Shown: in pieces, positions 9,487 through 48,803 of the stretch | How the letters are laid out: each line of letters begins with the position of its first letter | How positions within the stretch are numbered: the first letter of the stretch is position 1 | Assembly (NCBI RefSeq): GCF_003429565.1 | Contig: NZ_QUAK01000124.1 | Span: 21,955 to 85,954, forward strand | Direction: 5' to 3' | From: Streptomyces triticagri | GTDB taxonomy: Bacteria; Actinomycetota; Actinomycetes; Streptomycetales; Streptomycetaceae | Length of the DNA: 64,000 nucleotides | Position numbers and translations under genes: made by a program | The notes under the pieces: generated by a model | Told to the model about the DNA's origin: nothing | What the model saw: the letters and a program-made list of their open reading frames with translations, nothing else | Databases searched by the model: none

Positions 9487-10392
9487 ATGCGCAGCCTCTT
9501 CCCTGTGACCGACGAAACAGCCGACCAGGGCCCCGGGGCCGATCGCCAGTGGACGCTCGACGAGCTGGCCGACCGGTACGCCTATCCGGTGGATCGGGCG
9601 GATTCGGCGACGGAAGCGAAAGGTTCCGCTTCCGCTTCTTCTTCGCCGGCACCGTCGCCCGCTGCTTCGCCCACACCTTCGCCCGCTTCCTCCTCCGCTT
9701 CTCCTTCCGCTGCGCCGGGCCCCGCTCCCCGCCCCTGGCTGCGGGCCAACATGGTCTCCTCCCTGGACGGCGCCGCCCAGCACGACGGCCGCTCGCAGCC
9801 CATCTCCTGCGCCGCGGACATGCGGATCTTCGGCACCCTGCGCGGCCTCGCGGACGTGGTTCTGGTGGGTGCGGAGACGGTCCGGAAGGAGGGGTACCGG
9901 CCCGCCCGCGCGCGGGAGGCCTTCGCGGACCGCCGCAGGGCGGCCGGCCAGACCCCGGCCCCGGCGGTCGCCGTGATCAGTGCGGGTCTCGACCTCGACT
10001 TCTCCGCCCCGCTCTTCACCTCGCCGCTGACCCCGACGCTGATCCTGACCGGCGAGAAGGCGCGCGAGGACCGCAAGAAGGAGGCCGAGCAGGCCGGCGC
10101 CCGGGTGGTCGTCGCCGGCGAGGGCAGGGGAGTGGACCCGGCGCGAGCCGTGGCCGCACTCGCCGGGCTCGGCCTCACCCGGCTGCTCACCGAGGGCGGC
10201 CCGCGGATCCTTGGTCAGTTCATCGCGGCCGGAGTCCTGGACGAGCTCTGCCTGACCCTGTCGCCGATGGTCACCTCGGGGGAGGCGCAGCGGATCGCGG
10301 ACGGTCCCGGGATCGCCGTGCCGAAACGGTTCTCCTTGGCTTCGCTCCTGGAAGAGGAGGGGTTTTTGTTCACCCGTTACCGTCGAACCTGA
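9487..10392 (+). CDS. Pyrimidine-reductase-like protein (RibD C-terminal fold) with Ser/Ala/Pro insert
   Basis: A 301-residue protein whose last 220 residues match the NADPH-dependent RibD C-terminal/dihydrofolate-reductase fold: WLRANMVSSLDGAAQHDGRS, ADVVLVGAETVRKEGY, then LTRLLTEGGPRILGQFIAAG. In actinobacteria such stand-alone homologues are annotated as pyrimidine reductases of riboflavin synthesis, but the true substrate is unproven. Unusually, residues 41-80 are almost pure Ser/Ala/Pro ([17 protein letters not shown]), splitting the N-terminal segment (WTLDELADRYAYP) from the core. The start is the ATG divergent from zapE. No deaminase domain is present. Confidence 0.8.
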   Translation: MRSLFPVTDETADQGPGADRQWTLDELADRYAYPVDRADSATEAKGSASASSSPAPSPAASPTPSPASSSASPSAAPGPAPRPWLRANMVSSLDGAAQHDGRSQPISCAADMRIFGTLRGLADVVLVGAETVRKEGYRPARAREAFADRRRAAGQTPAPAVAVISAGLDLDFSAPLFTSPLTPTLILTGEKAREDRKKEAEQAGARVVVAGEGRGVDPARAVAALAGLGLTRLLTEGGPRILGQFIAAGVLDELCLTLSPMVTSGEAQRIADGPGIAVPKRFSLASLLEEEGFLFTRYRRT

Positions 10393-32681: not shown

Positions 32682-34247
32682 TCAGCCGGCACCGCCGCTC
32701 CTGGTGCAGCGGTCCGTGAGCTTCTCGCCGGAGGGCCAGGCCACGCGGTGGAAGGAGATCTTCCGGCCCTCCTTCCACTCCGGGTCGAGTTGTACGAGGT
32801 GGATGGCCTTGTTGAAGGCGTTGCCGTCGTTGTCGAGGCAGATCCAGCCGGTGGTTCCGTGCACCTTTTCCACGTTCTTCAGCCGCGGCCAGCCGTTGAA
32901 CACCTCGTCCAAGCCGGGGAGATCGTCCTTGCCGCCCTGGAGCCGGATGTTCTTGATGGCCGTACGTGTGGCGTCGTACGTGGTCATGAGCCGGGAGTCC
33001 TCCAGGTCCGACTCGGCGAGACCGAGTCCGCTGAAGCCCTCCCTGAGGGCGCTCAGTTCCTCCCTGGCGTCTGCGGCCTCGGGAGCCTTCGTCCTGTCCT
33101 TCTCCCAGGCGTCCGGGTGCCCGACGGCGGAGTACTCCACGGTCACTCGGCGCAGCGCCTTGCGCCATTTCCTGAGATCGCGGCTGCTGACGTAGGAGTC
33201 GATGGTGGAGGCGCCCGAGCCGGTGATGATCCGGAATCGGTTCTCGGTGTTCTCACAGCCGTGCGTGCCGAGTTGCAGTACGAGCTGCCGCAGCTGCGGC
33301 GGCCGGCCGGCGAAATAGATGTCGGAGGCGCCGGCCTGACAGATGTTCTGCGCGATGTTCAGGAAATCGTCGTCGAGGCCGGGATCGTCGTCGGAACCGC
33401 CCGACGACCGGTACTGCTCGGACTCCAGGGCCTCCGTGTCGCGCTGCTTGTTGAACGCGTCGCGGAGCGTGGCGACGTAGCTGTCACCGGGACGTGTGTC
33501 CTCCACGAGGAAGGTGCCCTTGTCGCCGGGGAGGCCGGCGAGCACACCGGCCTGGTCCTCATTGGGCGGCACGACCCGGGCGAGGCCCGGCATCGCGAGA
33601 TCCGTCGCGGTGATGGGGCCGCCGACGACCGGGATCCCCAGGTCCTTCGTCAGATGGCTGATGGCGTTCTTGGTGTTCTCCTCACTGACGTCGAAGCCGA
33701 CGACCGCGCGCAGCCTGTGCCGGGAGGCGGTCTCCTCCTCGAGATCGTCCGCCACGGGCCGGTACTGGGTGCTGCCTCGCCCGGCGTTGGCCAGGACCAG
33801 CCGGATCCTCGGTGCCCCCTCCTTGTTCATGCGGAGTTGGGCGAGGTGGGCTCCCTGCACCTCGTGGCGGATCTGACGCTCGACGGCGGCCCGGCGGTTC
33901 TTGTCGGTCTCGTCGGTGGTCATGGGGATGAGGACCGCGATGGTGACATACGGCGTGCTGCCGTCGGTCACCGTGTCGTTCTCCTGCTTGATGGAGGCGG
34001 ACACGTCAGCCAGGTCTCCGAAGACGTAGCCGCCGTCGGACACGCCGACGCACTCGTCCTCCGGGCCACGCTCCCAGATGTCGTCGGCGCAGTGCCGGGT
34101 CACGTACTCGAGCGTTCCCCATCGCTCTCCGCCGAAGAGGAAGTAGCCGATGCCCCCGAGGAAGAGGACTGCGAGGGCTCCGATGACGTAGGTACGGGGG
34201 CGCTGCCACCAAGGTACGTGCGGTGTCGGGGGGACGATGGGGCTCAC
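32682..34247 (-). CDS. Membrane-anchored periplasmic-binding-fold protein
   Basis: A 521-residue protein. Short cytoplasmic N-terminus, one transmembrane helix (YVIGALAVLFLGGIGYFLFGG, about residues 19-40), then a two-lobed branched-chain-amino-acid-receptor-like domain: VTIAVLIPMTTDETDKN, VVGFDVSEENTKNAISHL, GIPVVGGPITATDLAMPGL, FLVEDTRPGDSYVATLRDAF, ADSDLED-type linker and YDATRTAIKNIRLQGG. No ABC permease is nearby, so it looks like a sensor rather than an importer. Its GTG overlaps the stop of the P-loop gene (GTGA), preceded by AGGAAGGA, so the two are translated together. Confidence 0.8.
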   Translation of the reverse strand: MSPIVPPTPHVPWWQRPRTYVIGALAVLFLGGIGYFLFGGERWGTLEYVTRHCADDIWERGPEDECVGVSDGGYVFGDLADVSASIKQENDTVTDGSTPYVTIAVLIPMTTDETDKNRRAAVERQIRHEVQGAHLAQLRMNKEGAPRIRLVLANAGRGSTQYRPVADDLEEETASRHRLRAVVGFDVSEENTKNAISHLTKDLGIPVVGGPITATDLAMPGLARVVPPNEDQAGVLAGLPGDKGTFLVEDTRPGDSYVATLRDAFNKQRDTEALESEQYRSSGGSDDDPGLDDDFLNIAQNICQAGASDIYFAGRPPQLRQLVLQLGTHGCENTENRFRIITGSGASTIDSYVSSRDLRKWRKALRRVTVEYSAVGHPDAWEKDRTKAPEAADAREELSALREGFSGLGLAESDLEDSRLMTTYDATRTAIKNIRLQGGKDDLPGLDEVFNGWPRLKNVEKVHGTTGWICLDNDGNAFNKAIHLVQLDPEWKEGRKISFHRVAWPSGEKLTDRCTRSGGAG

Positions 34248-36271
34248 CAGGGATCCTTCCTGTAGGTCTTGATTCGCTCGCACAGCGACAGGCCCTGCTG
34301 GTCCGTCAGACGTCCACGCAGCTCGCCCAGCTGATCGATGATTTCGCCGCGCAGCTCGGCCGTGGGATCCCCCAGAGGGTCGGACCACAGATGCGCACAG
34401 GGGTCGTCCACGGGGTGCAGCGTGAGCTGGCCGGCGATCAGGAGTCTGGCGATCGGCCACTGTGACCGCGGGAGGACCGCGGTGACCCCGGTGACCCGGC
34501 GGCGGTACTCGCGCATGGCGTCGCCGGGCTGCGAGAGGGCGGGGTGCGGGGCGCGCTGGATCCAGGACAGCGCCGCACACCACTCCTGAGGCCGCGTGCG
34601 TCCCTCGCGTACGCCGCCGAGCAGTTCATCGAGGTAGTGCACGGCGGCCGCCGTGTTCTCCACCCCGCCCAGCGCCATGCGGTGGTACGCGGCATCCCGG
34701 CCGCTCGCCGCGGCGAGCAGCGCGCGGTGGGTGTCCGACCAAGGGCTGGTCTGCGTGCCACCGTCCCAGCCGTTCCGGCAGAGTTCCTGCAACAGCAGCC
34801 GGCGGACCAGAGCGGGCATCACCACGGCAGGACCTCCGTCCACGACCGCATCGCAGCGAAGATCGTCGCGAAGCAGCGCCCTGATGCTGTCGCGTACCGG
34901 TACCTGGCCGCAGAGCGTGCCGGCGGCCAGCGCCTGCGCCGGCACGACGGGCGCCGCCGCGCGGCGCAGATGGTGCGTGCTGAACTGCGCCTGGCCGAAC
35001 AGCGGTGCGCGCACTGCGGCGCCCAGCACGGACAGGTCGTCTCCGGGGGTGAGCATCCGGCGCAGGCGGTCGACCAGCGGCACCTCGCTGCGGAAGCGGG
35101 GCAGCGCCGACAGGACGGCGCCCGCGGCGTACGGATGACCGGAGCTCAGTTCGTGGACGAGCCTGCCGAGCCAGGCCTCGGGGCGGTCCACGCCTGCGGG
35201 CCACGGCAGCTCCCACTGCCGTGCTGCCCTGCTGCAGTGGTCGCGGACTTCGGTCAGGGTCAGTGGCCGCAGTTGAGCCACCACGACATCGACACCGCCC
35301 TGCACCGCCGAGGGCACGAACCGCTCCGCCCTTCCTCCGGCCGGCCCCTGCCAGCACCGCAGATATCCGCCGCTCGGCAGGTCCGACTGCTTGATGAGGT
35401 CCGGGCGGCTGCGTGCGGTGGCCACGACCGTCAGTGGGACTGCCGTCGCCCCAGTCTCCGCGAGACCCGTAGCGAGCAACTCCAGGAAATCCTGGCCGGG
35501 TACGTGGTCGGCATTGTCGAGGAACAGCGCGCAGCACAGCGTGCGGCGGCGGTGGCGCCGGCCGGTGGTGTAGGCGCGGCGCAGGTCGTCCAGGAACGCC
35601 CGCATCAGGACGCGCTCGGCGGCTCTGCGCTCTTCGGCGTGGGCATCCTGGAAGCCGTAGCTGAGGTCCACCAGGAAGTCCTCCGGCGAACCGGGCGCGC
35701 CGATGCCACGCACGATCCTGAGATGCCTCCTTCTGAGGAGTCTCCGCTCGACCGCCCCGGCGATCTCCACCAGGAGCGGCAGTGCCTGCAGCACGGCCGT
35801 GGGCAGTCCGGCCACGGATGCGGCCTTCTCGAGCAGCGGCAGGAAGCGGTCGCGCGCATGCTCCTGGCCGCGGCCCTGGGTCAACGCCCGCTCCATGGCC
35901 TGCAGATCGGCCTCCCGGTCCGACGGGTCGGTCTCCACCGCGAGGGCCAGGCGTGTGACCGCGTACGCAGGGAGCTGGAGCCGCGGGAAGCGGGGAGTCT
36001 CCGAGCGCATGCGGTAGGCGATCCGGGCGAGGACGTCCATCGCACCCGCGACCCCTTGGTCCGGATGCTCGCAGTTGATGCGGGCACAGTGGGTGTTGCC
36101 TGCCGTGGCCTCGAGGTGTGCCAGCAGGCTGCTCTTGCCACTGCCGCGACCGCCGAGCAGCACCAGTGGTTCCTGCGGATGGTGCAGCGCGCGCACATCG
36201 AGAAGCCGGTCGATGAACCACTGCTCCACAAGAAGGTCGCGCCGCGAATTGCCTGCCCATTCCTCCGGCAC
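34244..36271 (-). CDS. P-loop NTPase (STAND/NACHT-like) of unknown function
   Basis: A 675-residue protein. Walker A GGRGSGKSS is close to the N-terminus (residues 40-48). A probable Walker B is LCCALFLDNADHVPG. A VVATARSRPD segment resembles a sensor 1 motif of STAND NTPases. The C-terminal third is helical and Leu/Arg-rich without a named effector or repeat domain. GTG at 36271 is chosen because AGGGGAGGG precedes and an earlier in-frame start would add 73 low-complexity residues. Divergent from the RDD gene with two palindromic boxes in the shared promoter. Confidence 0.75.
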   Translation of the reverse strand: MPEEWAGNSRRDLLVEQWFIDRLLDVRALHHPQEPLVLLGGRGSGKSSLLAHLEATAGNTHCARINCEHPDQGVAGAMDVLARIAYRMRSETPRFPRLQLPAYAVTRLALAVETDPSDREADLQAMERALTQGRGQEHARDRFLPLLEKAASVAGLPTAVLQALPLLVEIAGAVERRLLRRRHLRIVRGIGAPGSPEDFLVDLSYGFQDAHAEERRAAERVLMRAFLDDLRRAYTTGRRHRRRTLCCALFLDNADHVPGQDFLELLATGLAETGATAVPLTVVATARSRPDLIKQSDLPSGGYLRCWQGPAGGRAERFVPSAVQGGVDVVVAQLRPLTLTEVRDHCSRAARQWELPWPAGVDRPEAWLGRLVHELSSGHPYAAGAVLSALPRFRSEVPLVDRLRRMLTPGDDLSVLGAAVRAPLFGQAQFSTHHLRRAAAPVVPAQALAAGTLCGQVPVRDSIRALLRDDLRCDAVVDGGPAVVMPALVRRLLLQELCRNGWDGGTQTSPWSDTHRALLAAASGRDAAYHRMALGGVENTAAAVHYLDELLGGVREGRTRPQEWCAALSWIQRAPHPALSQPGDAMREYRRRVTGVTAVLPRSQWPIARLLIAGQLTLHPVDDPCAHLWSDPLGDPTAELRGEIIDQLGELRGRLTDQQGLSLCERIKTYRKDPW

Positions 36272-36451
36272 TGGCCCTCCCCTCGGTTGGGACGGAGTCG
36301 ACGCCGGGCCTCGGACCCGGCGCGGATATGGCGACTGATTGCTGGGAGCCGTACGCAATTCGACGCAGTGGCCGTCCGGACGCCGGTTCCCCTTTCGTGA
36401 AACGGGTTCTGCTGCATCCAAATCCAACCCGGTGCGCGGCCTGGTGTGTAC

Positions 36452-36465
36452 CTGATGTCTGTCAG
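36452..36465. promoter_or_regulatory. CTGA-type palindromic box A (variant)
   Basis: CTGATGTCTGTCAG: one base off the CTGAC-N4-GTCAG palindrome found again at 36515 and 39406. Followed by GGG as at 39406. Confidence 0.65.
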
Positions 36466-36514
36466 GGCTGCCGGCCGTCGGAAGCCCCACCTGACAGCCG
36501 GCGGAACGCGCACC

Positions 36515-36528
36515 CTGACAGATGTCAG
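36515..36528. promoter_or_regulatory. CTGAC-N4-GTCAG palindromic box B
   Basis: CTGACAGATGTCAG, perfect 5-bp arms (6 bp if CTGACA/TGTCAG), 63 bp downstream of box A and 76 bp before the RDD ATG. Sits between the divergent NTPase and RDD genes. Confidence 0.75.
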
Positions 36529-36603
36529 ATGGCGCTGCTTCGCAGGATTTCTAATCTGGTCGGGGAGTTGCCCGGGAGGTTCGACATTCCGTCAGGAGAC
36601 CGA

Positions 36604-37074
36604 ATGCCCGCCGATGCCGACGAATCGCGCGCACCGTATGCCACGGGTTATCTCGGAGACCGTCCGCTGCATCAACTGGCCTCGCCGTCGCGGCGGTTCG
36701 GCGCCTTTCTGCTCGATGAGGCGATCCTTGCGCCGCTGCCTGTTCTTCTGGTCGTCCTCAATTCGGGCAGCCGGCGCTGGACCACCGCGCTCGTACTGCA
36801 TCTGGTGCTCTGCGCGCTCTATTCACCGGTGAGCACGGCCCGGTGGGGTGGCACGCCCGGGAAGCTGGTCCTCGGCATGCGGGTGGTGCAGGCCGCCGAC
36901 GGGCAACACCTGTCCTACGGTCGGGCCGCGGAGCGATTACTGACCCAGCTGGCCTTCACGTGCACACCGCTGCTCGGAGCCCTCAACTGCTTGTGGTGCT
37001 GCGGAGACCGGAGCAGGTGCCTGCACGATGTCGTCGTCGGCTCGCTGGTGATCCGGGTGCCGTGGACCCGGTGA
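36604..37074 (+). CDS. RDD-family membrane protein
   Basis: A 156-residue protein. The RDD domain is clear: RRFGAFLLDEAIL, a first helix pair, WGGTPGKLVLGMRVV, GRAAERLL, and a C-terminal RSRCLHDVVVGSLVI. RDD proteins are small membrane proteins, often of unknown role, some acting as Na/H antiporters. GGAG precedes the ATG. Its stop lies 5 bp from the 3' end of the convergent kinase gene. Confidence 0.88.
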   Translation: MPADADESRAPYATGYLGDRPLHQLASPSRRFGAFLLDEAILAPLPVLLVVLNSGSRRWTTALVLHLVLCALYSPVSTARWGGTPGKLVLGMRVVQAADGQHLSYGRAAERLLTQLAFTCTPLLGALNCLWCCGDRSRCLHDVVVGSLVIRVPWTR

Positions 37075-37079
37075 ACCGT

Positions 37080-38582
37080 TCACTTCGTGTACTGCGCAAG
37101 GTGCCGCTGCACAGCGGTGACGTACGGGCGGAGACGCTCGGGCACCCCGCGTTCGTTGATGATCGTCTTGTCGCTGCTCCGATAGCCCGCAGCGAGCATC
37201 CCGGTGAGGTCCTTGTGCAGGCCGCTCTGCTTGAAACGCTGATCCAGCCAGCACAGATAGGACGCCATGGCGACGATGGCGTCCGGCGGTGACATGTAGT
37301 CCTTCACGCCGTCCCGATTGCCGTCGGCCGCCCAGGAGTTGAAGACCCACGGGGTCCACATGGCGATGCCGTACTCGTCGTCCTTGGGCCGGGAGGCGTT
37401 CGCGTCGAAGCCGCTCTCCTCCTTCAGCATCGCCGCGAGCAGCGCGGGAGTGACTTCCTTCTCGGTGCATCCGGCGGCTGCGCGGACGATGACGGGGCGC
37501 AGCTTCCTGGGTACGTCGCTGCCGGCCGGGAAGGCATCGGCAGGGCTGCCCGGCGCGGGCGCGGGCGAGCTGTCGGCCTCGTTCGACGGTGCGTCACCGC
37601 TCGGAAGGGCGATCAGCATCGTCGCGAGCACGAGCGTCGCACTCCCGGCAAGCGCCCGGCCCCGCCGCCCCCGGCCGACGCCGCTCAACCTCCGAACCCG
37701 ACGCGCAAGATCGGGAGCGGTGAGCCGGCGACGGCTCGCGTGGTCGGGGCGCAGGCACTCGGCGACGAGGCGGGCCCACTCCTCGTGGATCGCCGGATCG
37801 AGCCGCAGTGCCGTACTGCCGCTCGCGTAGGACCGTACGTTCAGGGACCGGGCGCGCTCGTCGGCGCCGGGGAACGGGTGGACGCCGCCGGTGAGTACCT
37901 GGTGGGCGAGGATGCCGAAGGCCCAGATGTCGGCGGTGGGGCGCAACACGCTGCGCACGCCGGCCTGGTCGGTCCACCATTCCGGCGGTACGTAGTCGAA
38001 GGTGCCGATCGGGGGGCCGTAGGCGTGGGTGCCGTCGAGTTCGGCGGTGAGTCCGAAGTCGGCGAGCCACACACCGCCGGTGTCGGTGAGCAGCACATTG
38101 GACGGCTTGAGGTCGCCGTGCACCCAGCGGCGGGCGTGGATGTCGGCCAGCCCTTCGCTGATGCCGAGCAGGATGGCCCGGGCATCGGCGACCGGCCCGC
38201 CCTCAGTGGCGTCCAGCAGATCGCGCAGGGACCGGTCTGCGCGATCCATCACCAGTGCGGTGGTGCCCTCCAGCGACGGGTGTGCGGTGTCGCGGATGCT
38301 CAGGACCTCACGGGTGCGCACCAGATGCGGGTGATCGGCCTGCAGACTGAAGCGCACCTCCCTGTCCAGGAGGCCGGCCATGGCCTCGCGCTGCCCCGGC
38401 GACATCAGGTCGGTGCGCAGGACCTTCACGGCGGCCCGGGTGCGCTCGGTGATGTGCTCGGCCGCATACACGCATCCCCAACTTCCGTATCCGATCGGCT
38501 CGTCGAGTTCCCACTCGCCGATGCGGTAGCCCGCTGGAAGCACAGCGGGCAGAGGAGCACCCTCATTGGGCGTGTCCGTCAT
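37080..38582 (-). CDS. Transmembrane Ser/Thr kinase with extracellular lytic-transglycosylase-like domain
   Basis: A 500-residue protein. Hanks-type kinase domain: glycine loop GYGSWGCVYA (31-40), Lys53, catalytic HGDLKPSN (Asp157), DFG (175-177), PPEWW in place of APE, and DIWAFGILAHQVLTG. After one transmembrane helix (about 310-328) and a Pro/Ala/Ser linker, residues 370-500 resemble a lysozyme-like SLT domain: VTPALLAAMLKEESGFDANA (putative catalytic Glu389), GIAMWTPWVFNSW and AIVAMASYLCWLDQRF. The fusion suggests a cell-wall-sensing kinase. ATG overlaps the FHA stop (ATGA). Confidence 0.85.
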   Translation of the reverse strand: MTDTPNEGAPLPAVLPAGYRIGEWELDEPIGYGSWGCVYAAEHITERTRAAVKVLRTDLMSPGQREAMAGLLDREVRFSLQADHPHLVRTREVLSIRDTAHPSLEGTTALVMDRADRSLRDLLDATEGGPVADARAILLGISEGLADIHARRWVHGDLKPSNVLLTDTGGVWLADFGLTAELDGTHAYGPPIGTFDYVPPEWWTDQAGVRSVLRPTADIWAFGILAHQVLTGGVHPFPGADERARSLNVRSYASGSTALRLDPAIHEEWARLVAECLRPDHASRRRLTAPDLARRVRRLSGVGRGRRGRALAGSATLVLATMLIALPSGDAPSNEADSSPAPAPGSPADAFPAGSDVPRKLRPVIVRAAAGCTEKEVTPALLAAMLKEESGFDANASRPKDDEYGIAMWTPWVFNSWAADGNRDGVKDYMSPPDAIVAMASYLCWLDQRFKQSGLHKDLTGMLAAGYRSSDKTIINERGVPERLRPYVTAVQRHLAQYTK

Positions 38583-39337
38583 ACGGAACCCCTTCCGTCG
38601 CGCGGAGGAAGCAACGGGAGGTGTTCTTCGCGGACCAGGTCGAAGCGGAGCGCGAAACTGACCAGCTCCGCGCGCTTGTTGCTGGTCGCATTGCCGTCGC
38701 CGAGCCGCAGCTTCTCCATGACCAGGTACTCGATGTGGCGGTTGACGGCCGAGCGCTTGAGGTCGCGACAGGACGCCAGGGGCCGCAGCCGCTCCAGGAC
38801 GTCCACGACGCCGGGGACCGCTCCGGACGACGAGTTGCGCAGGCGCGGCTCGCACAGCGCGAGCAGCACCAGGAAATACTTCGACGTGCGGTCGAGGGCG
38901 AACGGCGTCTGGGTGGGCTCACCACTGAGCCGTGACATCCGATCGCCGTCCAGGTACGCGTGCTCGGGGGCGTACACCTTGAACGTCGCCTCTCCGCCGC
39001 GTGACGGCAGGAGCACACGGGAGAACTCGAAGGGCACCGGCGCCCCGAGCCGGCCTGGCGCCACCTTGATGTACTCGCCCGCACCCTCCATGTTCTCCAC
39101 GGCATAGGTGGAGGAGCTGGAGTAGTTGGACAGACGCCAGTAGTCCTCGGCGGCCGTGATCTGTCCCGCGATACGGGACACTCCCGGGTCGGAGAGCCGC
39201 AGCCGCACCGAGCTCCCTTCACCGCCGCGTCCGAAGTCGGCGCTCTCCCCGGGCCTCAGGCGCAGCTGCCGGGGCCGGCCCGGCGGTGCGTCCGCCGCGC
39301 CCGGGACCTCCGGCAGTTCCACGATGATGGTATGCAC
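38579..39337 (-). CDS. FHA-domain protein with C-terminal winged-helix-like domain
   Basis: A 252-residue soluble protein. FHA phosphothreonine-binding motifs are visible (FGR 35-37, SRIAG about 54-58, LSNYSSSSTY with Asn71). Residues 140-235 form a helical unit (LDRTSKYFLVLLALCEPRLR, CRDLKRSAVNRHIEYLVMEK) like a winged helix. Expected to bind phosphorylated partners of the kinase encoded by the overlapping downstream gene. GTG start behind GGAGGGG. A palindromic box lies 69 bp upstream. Confidence 0.82.
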   Translation of the reverse strand: MHTIIVELPEVPGAADAPPGRPRQLRLRPGESADFGRGGEGSSVRLRLSDPGVSRIAGQITAAEDYWRLSNYSSSSTYAVENMEGAGEYIKVAPGRLGAPVPFEFSRVLLPSRGGEATFKVYAPEHAYLDGDRMSRLSGEPTQTPFALDRTSKYFLVLLALCEPRLRNSSSGAVPGVVDVLERLRPLASCRDLKRSAVNRHIEYLVMEKLRLGDGNATSNKRAELVSFALRFDLVREEHLPLLPPRDGRGSV

Positions 39338-39405
39338 GCGGCACGCCCCTCCCTCGTCACTCCCGTGCGAGTCCGCCGGCCCAACTGTCCGCGGCGCGGC
39401 ACCCC

Positions 39406-39419
39406 CTGACATTCGTCAG
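39406..39419. promoter_or_regulatory. CTGAC-N4-GTCAG palindromic box C
   Basis: CTGACATTCGTCAG upstream of the FHA-kinase operon (minus strand). Flanks CC and GG extend the palindrome to CCCTGAC and GTCAGGG. Same core as boxes A and B. Confidence 0.75.
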
Positions 39420-39588
39420 GGCCCAGTCTCCCTTCCTGATTCCTACCGTGAGAAGCGCCGCGGCCGCCTCGGAATATGCGAACGCGCGGGCACGCGTGGG
39501 GAGTTGGCCGAGTTCCGATGGTCCGGACCGCTCTCTGCGGTCGGTGCGTATGGGAGGCTCCTGCGGCGGACCGTCGAAGGAGTGAGTG

Positions 39589-40863
39589 ATGGGCAAGTCG
39601 CCGACGCCCGCCCTGACACCGGGCGAGCTGCCGCGTCGGCTCGGGACCGCCGATGCCGTGGTGATCGGTCTGGGGTCGATGATCGGCGCCGGAATCTTCG
39701 CCGCGCTCGCCCCGGCCGCCCGGTCGGCAGGCAGCGGTTTGCTGATCGGCCTGGCGCTCGCCGCGGTCGTCGCCCACTGCAACGCCACGTCCTCCGCGCG
39801 GCTCGCCGCCCGCCATCCGGCGTCCGGCGGCACGTACGTCTACGGTCGCGAACGCCTAGGGGAGTTCTGGGGCCATCTCGCGGGCTGGGGCTTCGTGGTG
39901 GGCAAGACGGCGTCCTGCGCGGCGATGGCGCTCACGGTCGGCTCGTACGTCTGGCCGGGGCAGGCCCACGGTGTGGCGGTGGCGGCCGTGGTGGCGGTGA
40001 CGGCGGTCAACTACGCCGGCGTGCAGAAGTCGGCCGTGCTGACCCGGGTGATCGTCGCCGTGGTCCTGGCGGTGCTCGCCGCCGTGGTGGTCGCGGCCTT
40101 CACCTCGTCCAGGGCCGACGCGGCCCGCCTCGCGGTCGGGGACGACACGACCGCCGCGGGCGTGCTTCAGGCGGCCGGCCTGCTGTTCTTCGCCTTCGCC
40201 GGGTACGCGCGCATCGCCACACTCGGCGAAGAAGTCCGCGACCCCGAGCGCACCATTCCGCGGGCGATCCCGCTCGCCCTGGGCATCACCCTGGCCGTCT
40301 ATGCCCTGGTGGCCGTCGCCGTCCTGATGGTGCTCGGTCCCGACGGGCTCGCCGGGGCGACGGCGCCGCTCTCGGACGCGGCACGGGCTGTGGGCGGCGA
40401 ACCGCTCGTGGCCGTCGTGCGCCTCGGTGCCGCCGTGGGCGCGCTCGGCACCCTGCTCGCCCTGGTACTCGGTGTCTCGCGCACCATGTTGGCCATGGCC
40501 CGTGACCGGCATCTGCCGCGGGCCCTGGCCGCCGTGCACCCGCGCTTCCACGTACCGCACCGGGCCGAGGCCCTGATCGGTGCGATGGTGGCCGTGGTCG
40601 CGGCGACGGCGGACGTGCGTGGGGCGATCGGTTTCTCCTCGTTCGGTGTACTCGTCTACTACGCGATCGCCAACGCCGCCGCCTGGACGCTGACCGCGGC
40701 AGAGAATCGGCCCAGCCGCCTGGTCCCTGCCGTGGGTCTGGCCGGTTGTCTCGTACTGGCCGGTGCGCTGCCGTTGACCTCGGTTCTGGCCGGCGCCGCG
40801 GTGCTCGCCCTGGGGGCGGCCGGGTACGGCGTGCGCCGGGTCCGGCGCGGAGCGAGGTCCTGA
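39589..40863 (+). CDS. APC-family amino-acid permease
   Basis: A 424-residue membrane protein with about 12 transmembrane helices. Helix 1 carries the unwound GLGSMIGAGIFAALAP motif; FAFAGYARIATLGEEVRDPERTIPRAI marks helix 6 and the following loop typical of the APC superfamily. Substrate not predictable beyond amino acid or amine. ATG follows GGAGTG. A 16-bp tandem repeat starts 20 bp after its stop. Confidence 0.88.
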   Translation: MGKSPTPALTPGELPRRLGTADAVVIGLGSMIGAGIFAALAPAARSAGSGLLIGLALAAVVAHCNATSSARLAARHPASGGTYVYGRERLGEFWGHLAGWGFVVGKTASCAAMALTVGSYVWPGQAHGVAVAAVVAVTAVNYAGVQKSAVLTRVIVAVVLAVLAAVVVAAFTSSRADAARLAVGDDTTAAGVLQAAGLLFFAFAGYARIATLGEEVRDPERTIPRAIPLALGITLAVYALVAVAVLMVLGPDGLAGATAPLSDAARAVGGEPLVAVVRLGAAVGALGTLLALVLGVSRTMLAMARDRHLPRALAAVHPRFHVPHRAEALIGAMVAVVAATADVRGAIGFSSFGVLVYYAIANAAAWTLTAAENRPSRLVPAVGLAGCLVLAGALPLTSVLAGAAVLALGAAGYGVRRVRRGARS

Positions 40864-47837: not shown

Positions 47838-48782
47838 TCACTCGGCCGCGGCGGGCAGCGTGATCCGCTTCTCGAACCAATGATGGGCGTACGGCTCGTC
47901 GTTGAAGGCCGGCACCTCCCGGAAGCCGGCGGAACGGTAGAGGCCGATCGCGCTCGCCAGCGCCTTGTTGGTGTCCAGGCGCAGGGTGTCGTGTCCGTGC
48001 CGCGCGGCCTCGGATTCGAGCTCGGCGAGGAACCGGCGTGCGAGACCGAGGCCCCGGGCGTCGGGCGCCACCCACATCCGCTTGACCTCGGCCGCCGCAC
48101 CGTGCGGGAGCTTGAGTCCGGCGCAGCCGACGGGGTCGCCGTACAGCCGGGCGACCAGGAACAGTCCCTTCGGCGGGCGGAGTTCGCCCGCGTCGGGCAG
48201 CAGGCTGCGGCCGGGCTCGAAGCCGGTGTCGAAGGCCTCCTGCAGCTCCGCGAAGTAGGACTCCAGGCACCACCGGGCATCGGGGTGGTCCGGGTCGACG
48301 ACGTCCACGGCCACGGTCGCGGCCGTCAGGAGCCGGTCGACCTCCGCCATCGCGGCGACGAGGCGGGCGCGCTGAGCGGAGTTGAGCGGCTGCAGGAGCG
48401 AGCCGGCCAGTTCGTCGCTGCGCGCGTCGAGTACGGAGCGCTCGGCGCGGCCCGCCGAGGTGAGGCGTACCGTGCGCACCCGCCGGTCGCGCGGCTTCGG
48501 CTCGACGACGACCAGGCCGTCGGTCTCCAGGGAGCGGAGCAGCCGGCTGAGGTAGCCCGAGTCGAGGCCGAGACGCTCGCGCAGGCGGCGCACGTCCTGC
48601 GGCCGCCCGCCGATCTCCCAGAGCAGTCGGGCCTCGCCCACGGGGCGGCTCCGGCCCAGGTAGTGGTCGTGCAGGACACCGACGCGCTCGGTGACGGTGC
48701 GGTTGAACCGCCGTACGCGACGTATCTGGTCGGTGGGGGCCGGGTGCTCGGGAGAGGTCTCGTGCTGCGGTGCGCCAGTCAT
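47838..48782 (-). CDS. MarR-GNAT fusion: regulator with acetyltransferase domain
   Basis: A 314-residue bifunctional protein. Residues 1-150: MarR winged helix (RRFNRTVTERVGVLHDHYLG, RLRERLGLDSGYLSRLLRSL, wing EPKPRDRRVRTVRLTSAG). Residues 160-314: GNAT acetyltransferase with acetyl-CoA loop KRMWVAPDARGLGLARRFLA and VLDTNKAL-like SAIGLYRSAGF. A palindrome abuts the start codon, so it is almost certainly autoregulated and leaderless. Confidence 0.9.
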   Translation of the reverse strand: MTGAPQHETSPEHPAPTDQIRRVRRFNRTVTERVGVLHDHYLGRSRPVGEARLLWEIGGRPQDVRRLRERLGLDSGYLSRLLRSLETDGLVVVEPKPRDRRVRTVRLTSAGRAERSVLDARSDELAGSLLQPLNSAQRARLVAAMAEVDRLLTAATVAVDVVDPDHPDARWCLESYFAELQEAFDTGFEPGRSLLPDAGELRPPKGLFLVARLYGDPVGCAGLKLPHGAAAEVKRMWVAPDARGLGLARRFLAELESEAARHGHDTLRLDTNKALASAIGLYRSAGFREVPAFNDEPYAHHWFEKRITLPAAAE

Positions 48783-48803
48783 TCTCTGACCTTAGTCAGA
48801 GAA
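48782..48803. promoter_or_regulatory. MarR-type operator at the MarR-GNAT start codon
   Basis: Perfect arms TTCTCTGAC and GTCAGAGAA with a 4-nt centre, 22 bp in all, touching the start codon. Its core CTGAC-N4-GTCAG equals that of the boxes near the kinase cluster. Confidence 0.82.

What the first reader, a model, noticed from the sequence alone, without database searches (positions are those of the whole stretch)
36452..39419. Shared palindrome CTGAC-N4-GTCAG in both promoters of the kinase/NTPase cluster
Two copies lie between the divergent NTPase and RDD genes (36452 variant, 36515 perfect) and one before the FHA-kinase operon (39406). All are 14 bp with the same arms; two are followed by GG(G). 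This ties all five genes to one regulator though none is encoded inside the cluster.
Basis: seen in the sequence. Interest (0 to 1): 0.68.

Follow-up and report, generated by a model that had tools for sequence, protein, structure and literature searches.

The report
Operator of a kinase-linked FHA activator
The palindrome looks like the binding site of a gene-switching protein that is encoded in this same Streptomyces cluster beside its partner protein kinase, and in related bacteria the same kind of site sits in front of many genes for small secreted proteins.

Summary
The sites are real: CTGAC-N4-GTCAG is perfect at 36515 and 39406, with one mismatch at 36452. Their number in the window is not unusual; their promoter setting is. 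In 80 loci from genomes holding a close orthologue of the window's FHA protein, a -10-like TANNNT lies 23-25 nt after the palindrome in 65 of 161 orientations, and at most once at any other offset from 0 to 59. That centres the core near -43.5, a class II activator position (inferred). Of the genome's 13 perfect palindromes only the two in this cluster have it. Over 392 genomes the extended motif is present in 37 of 47 with a close FHA orthologue and 11 of 345 without. Within the FHA family it follows the putative recognition helix. Best reading: the regulator is encoded in the cluster. It is the FHA protein (38579-39337), whose C-terminal domain models like a LuxR/NarL helix-turn-helix; the neighbouring membrane kinase probably controls it. 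The 39406 promoter points to the amino-acid permease (39586-40863), not to FHA-kinase. In relatives the downstream genes mostly encode secreted proteins by a crude rule (56 of 61 called genes). All of this is inferred from sequence.

The parts
36452..36465 (-). operator variant (1 mismatch), read on - strand CTGACAGACATCAG, facing the NTPase-SBP operon
36422..36427 (-). weak -10-like TTGGAT, 24 nt after the 36452 operator
   Evidence: does not match TANNNT
36515..36528 (+). perfect operator CTGACAGATGTCAG facing the RDD gene
36552..36557 (+). -10-like TAATCT, 23 nt after the operator
39406..39419 (+). perfect operator CTGACATTCGTCAG; promoter polarity towards the permease, lies between divergent FHA and permease genes
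39444..39449 (+). -10-like TACCGT, 24 nt after the operator
38579..39337 (-). FHA protein, proposed DNA-binding regulator: N-terminal FHA fold, C-terminal HTH-like domain
38582..38923 (-). C-terminal HTH-like domain with putative recognition helix SAVNRHIEYL
37080..38582 (-). Ser/Thr kinase with a C-terminal SLT (lytic-transglycosylase-like) domain, overlaps the FHA gene end; proposed controller of FHA (membrane span between the domains seen by eye)
36604..37074 (+). RDD-family membrane protein, predicted target
34244..36271 (-). AAA NTPase, predicted target (start chosen at GTG 36271 by eye)
32682..34247 (-). putative substrate-binding-protein-like protein, overlaps the NTPase gene end (class by eye; no convincing Pfam match)
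39586..40863 (+). APC-type amino-acid permease, predicted target of the 39406 promoter

Best explanation
The palindrome is the operator of the FHA protein encoded in the cluster. A dimer of the FHA protein binds CTGAC-N4-GTCAG through its C-terminal LuxR/NarL-like HTH domain. Bound just upstream of a poor -35 and about 24 bp before the -10, it activates transcription as a class II activator. In the window it would activate RDD (36515), the amino-acid permease (39406, + strand) and, more weakly, the NTPase-SBP operon (36452). The kinase in the FHA operon, which carries an SLT domain that should lie outside the membrane, probably senses a cell-wall or envelope signal and switches the FHA protein through phospho-threonine. 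In relatives the regulon is mainly small secreted proteins. In six loci, two of them S. albus subspecies, the site sits over the FHA gene's own core promoter, which suggests autorepression there. Shown by computation: the motif, the spacing to the -10, co-occurrence with FHA, covariation with the helix, and the secreted character of most downstream genes. Inferred: DNA binding by FHA, activation, dimerisation, control by the kinase, and the signal.
For: -10 spacing: TANNNT at offsets 23/24/25 in 11/52/2 of 161 orientations, 0-1 at any other offset from 0 to 59; by site, 62 of 81. Controls: 0 of 21 CCTGACN4GTCAGG sites from genomes without a close orthologue; 0 of the 11 other own-genome copies. 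Co-occurrence: motif in 37 of 47 clade-A genomes, 104 sites, against 11 of 345 others, 11 sites, Fisher p = 7.6e-33. Leaving out the ten genomes in which the motif was found: 28 of 37 (arithmetic). Linkage: 22 of 104 sites lie within 10 kb of the FHA gene, 0.22 expected. Helix covariation: palindrome in 34 of 57 loci with the NYH/NRH helix, 21 of them with TANNNT at 22-25, against 2 of 41 loci of all other helix classes, 0 with it. FHA relatives at about 40% identity that keep NYH (L206, L207, L209, L211, L212) have 6 sites in their loci, 1 to 10 kb from FHA, all with TANNNT at 22-23. C-terminal model: the nine top VIA rows are all LuxR/NarL HTH domains (DegU Z 7.9, rmsd 2.3, 68 aligned; TraR 7.4; VraR; NarL; LiaR), next row 5.3. 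N-terminus: FHA fold, best Foldseek E 8.3e-5. Targets: 56 of 61 called downstream genes have a signal-peptide-like N-terminus by a crude rule that also of 771 background genes; targets were tried with every in-frame upstream start, background genes with one start, which favours the targets.
Against: No sequence family match: Pfam gives no GerE/LuxR hit for any of 89 C-terminal domains, Foldseek alone has no significant match, and profile comparison with a NarL-type regulator of the window gave E 0.069. VIA Z below 8 can be only a common arrangement. Ten of 47 clade-A genomes lack the exact 16-bp motif, 18 of 38 clade-A named loci have no palindrome in the DNA held, and 23 of 57 loci with the NYH/NRH helix have none. 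Of the 11 genomes with the motif but no clade-A FHA, 5 were examined and one (G162, L108) has the full motif plus -10. The own genome's one exact extended motif (C136) lacks the -10. The window's helix is NRH, not NYH, and its sites are the less regular ones. 19 of 81 examined sites lack the -10. Whether clade-A genomes form one branch of the species tree was not tested. In six loci the -10 follows at 8 nt, before FHA itself, so that site type does not fit activation. In L165, L171 and the window the site beside FHA faces away from FHA.
Confidence: 0.72

Rival explanations
1. The palindrome is the operator of a different, unlinked transcription factor that is co-inherited with the FHA-kinase locus; FHA acts elsewhere.
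For: C-terminal domain has no sequence match to a known DNA-binding family; G162 has a full site without a clade-A FHA. I did not search for other co-inherited regulators.
Against: Motif tracks the putative recognition helix of FHA across the family, including remote relatives; sites are physically linked to FHA; five FHA loci without a kinase directly downstream keep the site.
Confidence: 0.15
2. The palindrome plus TANNNT is the promoter of an alternative sigma factor, with the palindrome as its -35 element.
For: Fixed spacing to the -10.
Against: The element is a symmetric palindrome centred near -43.5, upstream of the usual -35 place, which here reads about GGaCC; the -10 is an ordinary TAnnnT. 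I noticed no sigma gene recurring beside the sites by eye (one gene in L052 looks ECF-like), but did not search for one.
Confidence: 0.06
3. The palindromes are transcription-terminator or RNA hairpins.
For: In L017 (the same locus as L046 and L165) the site lies inside an 18-bp perfect stem (by eye); some sites lie near gene ends.
Against: A -10 at a fixed downstream offset in 62 of 81 sites is not expected of terminators; in the window the arms extend only 5-7 bp (by eye).
Confidence: 0.03
4. The window's three sites are remnants or chance copies, although the operator is real in relatives.
For: Window count is not unusual; flanks and the 36452 arm are degenerate; helix is NRH.
Against: The two perfect copies are the only 2 of 13 in the genome with the diagnostic -10, and both lie in the FHA gene's cluster.
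Confidence: 0.08

Closest known systems
EmbR-PknH of Mycobacterium tuberculosis (passages of PMC9239209 and PMC6213207 seen)
   Same: A phosphothreonine-reading FHA domain joined to a DNA-binding domain in one protein, with the gene in one operon with a Ser/Thr kinase gene; link to the cell envelope.
   Different: EmbR has an N-terminal OmpR-like winged helix, a BTAD domain and a C-terminal FHA. Here FHA is N-terminal, the DNA-binding-like domain is C-terminal and LuxR/NarL-like, and the kinase tail is SLT-like. PMC9239209 did not detect EmbR phosphorylation in vivo.
FHA+LuxR regulators of Rhodococcus and Nocardia (passages of PMC3466318 seen; PMC11784345, abstract, outline and passages seen, also lists FHA among N-terminal domains of LuxR regulators)
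   Same: FHA domain plus LuxR-type HTH.
   Different: The 2012 census traces the fusion to the ancestor of Rhodococcus and Nocardia, by a LuxR_C_like domain match. The C-terminal domain here has no GerE/LuxR Pfam match. No operator or kinase partner is given for them in the passages seen.
LuxR/TraR/NarL-type class II activators (recalled)
   Same: Dimeric HTH proteins on dyad sites centred near -42 that activate a promoter with a weak -35; the C-terminal model resembles them.
   Different: Sensor domain is FHA, not autoinducer-binding or receiver.

Membership tests
EmbR family | N-terminal OmpR-like winged-helix DNA-binding domain | tested here: not met
   N-terminal part is an FHA fold; the helical DNA-binding-like domain is C-terminal
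EmbR family | FHA domain in the same protein | tested here: met
   Foldseek best hit 3po8, an FHA domain, E 8.3e-5, and FhaA 3oun E 9.3e-5; no Pfam match
EmbR family | gene beside a Ser/Thr kinase gene | tested here: met
   window; kinase directly downstream in 41 of 52 loci with C-terminal-domain identity of 59% or more, a tblastn count that may miss some
EmbR family | BTAD domain | not tested
   none was sought; no Pfam match in the FHA protein
EmbR family | phosphorylation by the kinase | not testable with these tools
   needs biochemistry
FHA+LuxR regulators | C-terminal domain matched by the LuxR/GerE family model | tested here: not met
   no GerE among the 17 families listed for 89 members at E up to 1; one member each had weak GntR (0.087) and FUR (0.3) matches
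FHA+LuxR regulators | LuxR/NarL HTH fold | tested here: inconclusive
   nine top VIA rows are this fold, Z 6.4-7.9; Foldseek not significant; hhalign E 0.069 in matching register
class II activator sites | dyad centred near -42 with a -10 at fixed spacing | tested here: met
   offsets 23-25 in 65 of 161 orientations; start sites inferred, not mapped
class II activator sites | activation by the bound protein | not testable with these tools
   needs reporter or in vitro transcription

The most novel reading that the evidence does not exclude
An undescribed family of kinase-controlled transcription activators, with an FHA domain fused to a highly diverged LuxR/NarL-like HTH, runs a secretome regulon in many Streptomyces. 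Its operator can be read from sequence (CCTGACAnnTGTCAGG, then 22-24 nt, then TAnnnT), its signal enters through a kinase with a muramidase-like outer domain, and the same operator logic serves remote FHA relatives, in two of whose loci a site lies before a carrier-protein-like gene.
Probability: 0.6. Interest if true: 0.75.

Novelty: new variant of a known kind. Interest (0 to 1): 0.62.

Why it matters
Streptomyces carry many Ser/Thr kinases, and I know (recalled) of few direct links from one of them to defined promoters. Here the sequence suggests a complete route: an outer SLT-like sensor, a kinase, an FHA transcription factor, a defined operator, and a regulon of small secreted proteins (SH3, NlpC/P60, I36-like and beta-lactamase-like ones, and many without a family). 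It gives a testable operator and a way to assign function to secreted orphan proteins.

Tried and rejected
Raw window count as evidence: not significant, dropped. Hairpin reading: an 18-bp stem was seen in one locus only (L017/L046/L165, by eye). 48786 as part of the set: rejected; its arms extend as TTCTCTGAC/GTCAGAGAA at the start of a MarR-GNAT gene and it has no -10 at the offset, so it looks like that MarR protein's own operator. 7760 and 35244 (1 mismatch): not pursued; 35244 lies inside the NTPase gene. Other own-genome copies near acyl-CoA synthetase, NDH-2, mscL and TetR genes (names by eye): no diagnostic -10, not counted as targets. Conservation of the site directly before FHA: not general; it holds for the window and 8 of 38 named clade-A loci (L154-L157, L161, L162, L165, L171). 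One search listed only gene starts 30-145 bp from a site, so its distances are not evidence of spacing. Foldseek alone on the C-terminal domain: no significant match. Profile searches of PDB sequences: only weak hits, best a TEF DNA-binding domain at E 0.53 and 0.076. NCBIfam: none for FHA. Pfam on 20 proteins, the window permease and 19 predicted targets: 15 without a match at E 0.01. Literature: the motif strings gave 0 papers; combinations of FHA, kinase, regulator, EmbR, transglycosylase, I36 and Streptomyces and the two half-sites with Streptomyces and palindrome (184 papers, 15 listed, none of those opened) showed no paper on this operator or protein in what I saw, mostly listings; only open-licence PMC text was searched. 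The signal-peptide test is a crude home-made rule that over-calls. The clade-A cut (285 bits or more against 258 or less) was set after seeing the gap. One search pools two collections with some overlap (L046 and L165 are one locus).
Full report
Observation. A fourth perfect copy at 48786 belongs to a MarR-GNAT gene with different, longer arms. By count alone the window is not unusual: 6 matches at up to one mismatch, shuffle mean 3.26, 10 of 100 shuffles reaching 6. The genome holds 13 perfect copies in 7.47 Mb, against 3 for the backward control.

Genes. From left to right: a putative substrate-binding-like protein (32682-34247, -, class by eye), an AAA NTPase (34244-36271, -; Pfam AAA_22 E 5e-7), an RDD membrane protein (36604-37074, +), a Ser/Thr kinase with a C-terminal SLT domain (37080-38582, -; Pkinase E 8e-35, SLT 3e-5), an FHA protein (38579-39337, -; no Pfam match) and, divergently, an amino-acid permease (39586-40863, +; AA_permease_2 E 5e-41).

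Conservation. FHA relatives were found in 39 of 100 related genomes and in 64 named loci. In the nearest orthologous clusters with enough flank, a perfect palindrome lies within a few kb of FHA-kinase in 7 of 7 (L044, L046, L047, L049-L052), mostly with CC/GG flanks; two more, L045 and L048, are cut by a contig end near FHA and have none. Of the 24 more distant loci L053-L076, two have a perfect copy: L059, about 3 kb from FHA, and L063, the own-genome FHA paralogue, just upstream of it. Over 38 named clade-A loci it occurs 26 times in 20 loci, the mean over all 60 arm permutations being 1.57; the extended form CCTGACA-N2-TGTCAGG occurs 11 times, the mean over all 420 permutations being 0.033. 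One other permuted arm, ATCGC, also scored high (22 hits in 12 loci) and is unexplained.

Co-occurrence. Over 392 genomes of the genus, CCTGACANNTGTCAGG is present in 48. FHA hits in the same genomes fall into a close group (clade A, 47 genomes, 285 bits or more) and the rest (258 bits or less). The motif is in 37 of 47 of clade A (104 sites) and 11 of 345 of the others (one site each), Fisher p = 7.6e-33. Without the ten genomes in which I found the motif it is 28 of 37. Relatedness of the genomes was not corrected for. Linkage is a separate argument: 22 of 104 sites lie within 10 kb of the clade-A FHA gene, 0.22 expected.

Promoter grammar. I fetched 80 site loci from clade-A genomes, holding 81 of the 104 sites. 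Without choosing an orientation, TANNNT occurs at offset 23, 24 or 25 after the 14-bp core in 11, 52 and 2 of 161 orientations and at most once at any other offset from 0 to 59; after removing near-duplicates it is 7, 20 and 2 of 104. By site it is 62 of 81. Of 21 CCTGACN4GTCAGG sites from genomes without clade-A FHA, none has it; of 5 loci examined among the 11 exceptions with the extended motif, one has it. Taking the -10 to start at -12, the core is centred near -43.5, as for class II activators (inference). Among 31 distinct promoters with the -10 at offset 24, positions not fixed by selection are also conserved: C at -2, G/A at 15, C at 17 and CC before the -10.

The window's promoters. 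36515 has TAATCT at offset 23 on the + strand, facing RDD with a leader of about 40 nt. 39406 has TACCGT at offset 24 on the + strand, facing the permease; on the FHA side there is no TANNNT at offsets 0-39. 36452 on the - strand has TTGGAT at offset 24, facing the NTPase. None of the other 11 perfect copies in the genome has TANNNT at 23-25. In six named loci (L154-L157, L161, L162), two of them S. albus subspecies, the site before FHA has TAGGAT at offset 8, so it covers the FHA core promoter; in L165 and L171 it faces away from FHA, as in the window.

Regulon in relatives. For 61 orientations with the -10 and a called downstream gene, 56 genes begin with a signal-peptide-like stretch; the same crude rule of 771 background genes. 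The targets were tried with all in-frame upstream starts, the background genes with one, and some of the 56 are doubtful by eye. Of 19 representatives only four had a Pfam match at E 0.01: SH3_3, NLPC_P60, and Inhibitor_I36 and Beta-lactamase2 below their cut-offs.

The regulator. The FHA protein models as an N-terminal FHA fold followed by a helical domain. That domain alone (89-sequence alignment, pLDDT 79) has no significant Foldseek hit, but the nine best VIA rows are all LuxR/NarL HTH domains (Z 6.4-7.9), then a gap to 5.3. The tool warns that Z under 8 may be a common arrangement. Alignment to a NarL-type regulator of the window places the helices in the same register but is not significant (E 0.069). 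The functional argument is stronger: across 98 loci, helix class NYH or NRH has the palindrome in 34 of 57 (21 with TANNNT at 22-25), other classes in 2 of 41 (none with it). Five remote relatives (about 40% identity) with NYH carry six sites, 1 to 10 kb from FHA, all with TANNNT at 22-23. In L173, L177, L180, L188 and L205 the site persists beside FHA with no kinase directly downstream.

The kinase. It lies directly downstream of FHA in 41 of 52 loci with a C-terminal domain identity of 59% or more. Its SLT domain, which should lie outside the membrane, suggests a peptidoglycan-related signal. That it controls the FHA protein is inferred from operon structure and from EmbR-PknH, not shown; for EmbR itself phosphorylation was not detected in vivo (PMC9239209, passages).

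Relation to known systems. It works like EmbR-PknH in logic but fails the EmbR domain order. It resembles the FHA+LuxR fusions reported from Rhodococcus and Nocardia (PMC3466318, passages) but is not matched by the GerE/LuxR model. I found no paper on this operator or protein in the searches, of which I saw mostly listings. I file it as a new variant of a known kind.

Results against. Ten clade-A genomes lack the exact motif; 18 of 38 named clade-A loci have no palindrome in the DNA held; 19 of 81 sites lack the -10; G162 (L108) has motif and -10 without a clade-A FHA, beside a gene family also found near FHA in two relatives (L047, L049), perhaps a lost or missed FHA; the own genome's one exact extended motif (C136) lacks the -10; the window's helix is NRH and its sites are the less regular ones; the own-genome FHA paralogue (helix QWN) has a palindrome just upstream without the -10, unexplained.

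Noticed in passing
window 48786-48799: Perfect CTGACCTTAGTCAG inside a 22-bp palindrome TTCTCTGACCTTAGTCAGAGAA at the start of a MarR-GNAT fusion gene (47838-48782, -); probably its own operator, unrelated to the cluster.
   Followed up: partly
L063:4188-4201 (own genome contig C40): The own-genome FHA paralogue, with a different putative recognition helix (QWN), has a perfect palindrome just upstream of its start but no -10 at the diagnostic offset.
   Followed up: partly
L206, L207, L209, L211, L212: Remote FHA relatives with the NYH helix have six CTGAC-N4-GTCAG sites in their loci, each extended to GTAC on one side and with a -10 at 22-23; in L211 and L212 one site lies about 95 bp before a carrier-protein-like gene.
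   Followed up: partly
L108 (genome G162): Full motif plus -10 in a genome without a clade-A FHA, next to a gene family (VSVEFNH...) that also lies near FHA-kinase in L047 and L049.
   Followed up: no
38 named clade-A loci (L152-L188, L214): The palindrome ATCGC-N4-GCGAT occurs 22 times in 12 loci, far above most other permuted arms; source unknown.
   Followed up: no
L154-L157, L161, L162 at 9938-9940: The operator covers the FHA gene's core promoter (TAGGAT 8 nt after it), suggesting autorepression.
   Followed up: partly
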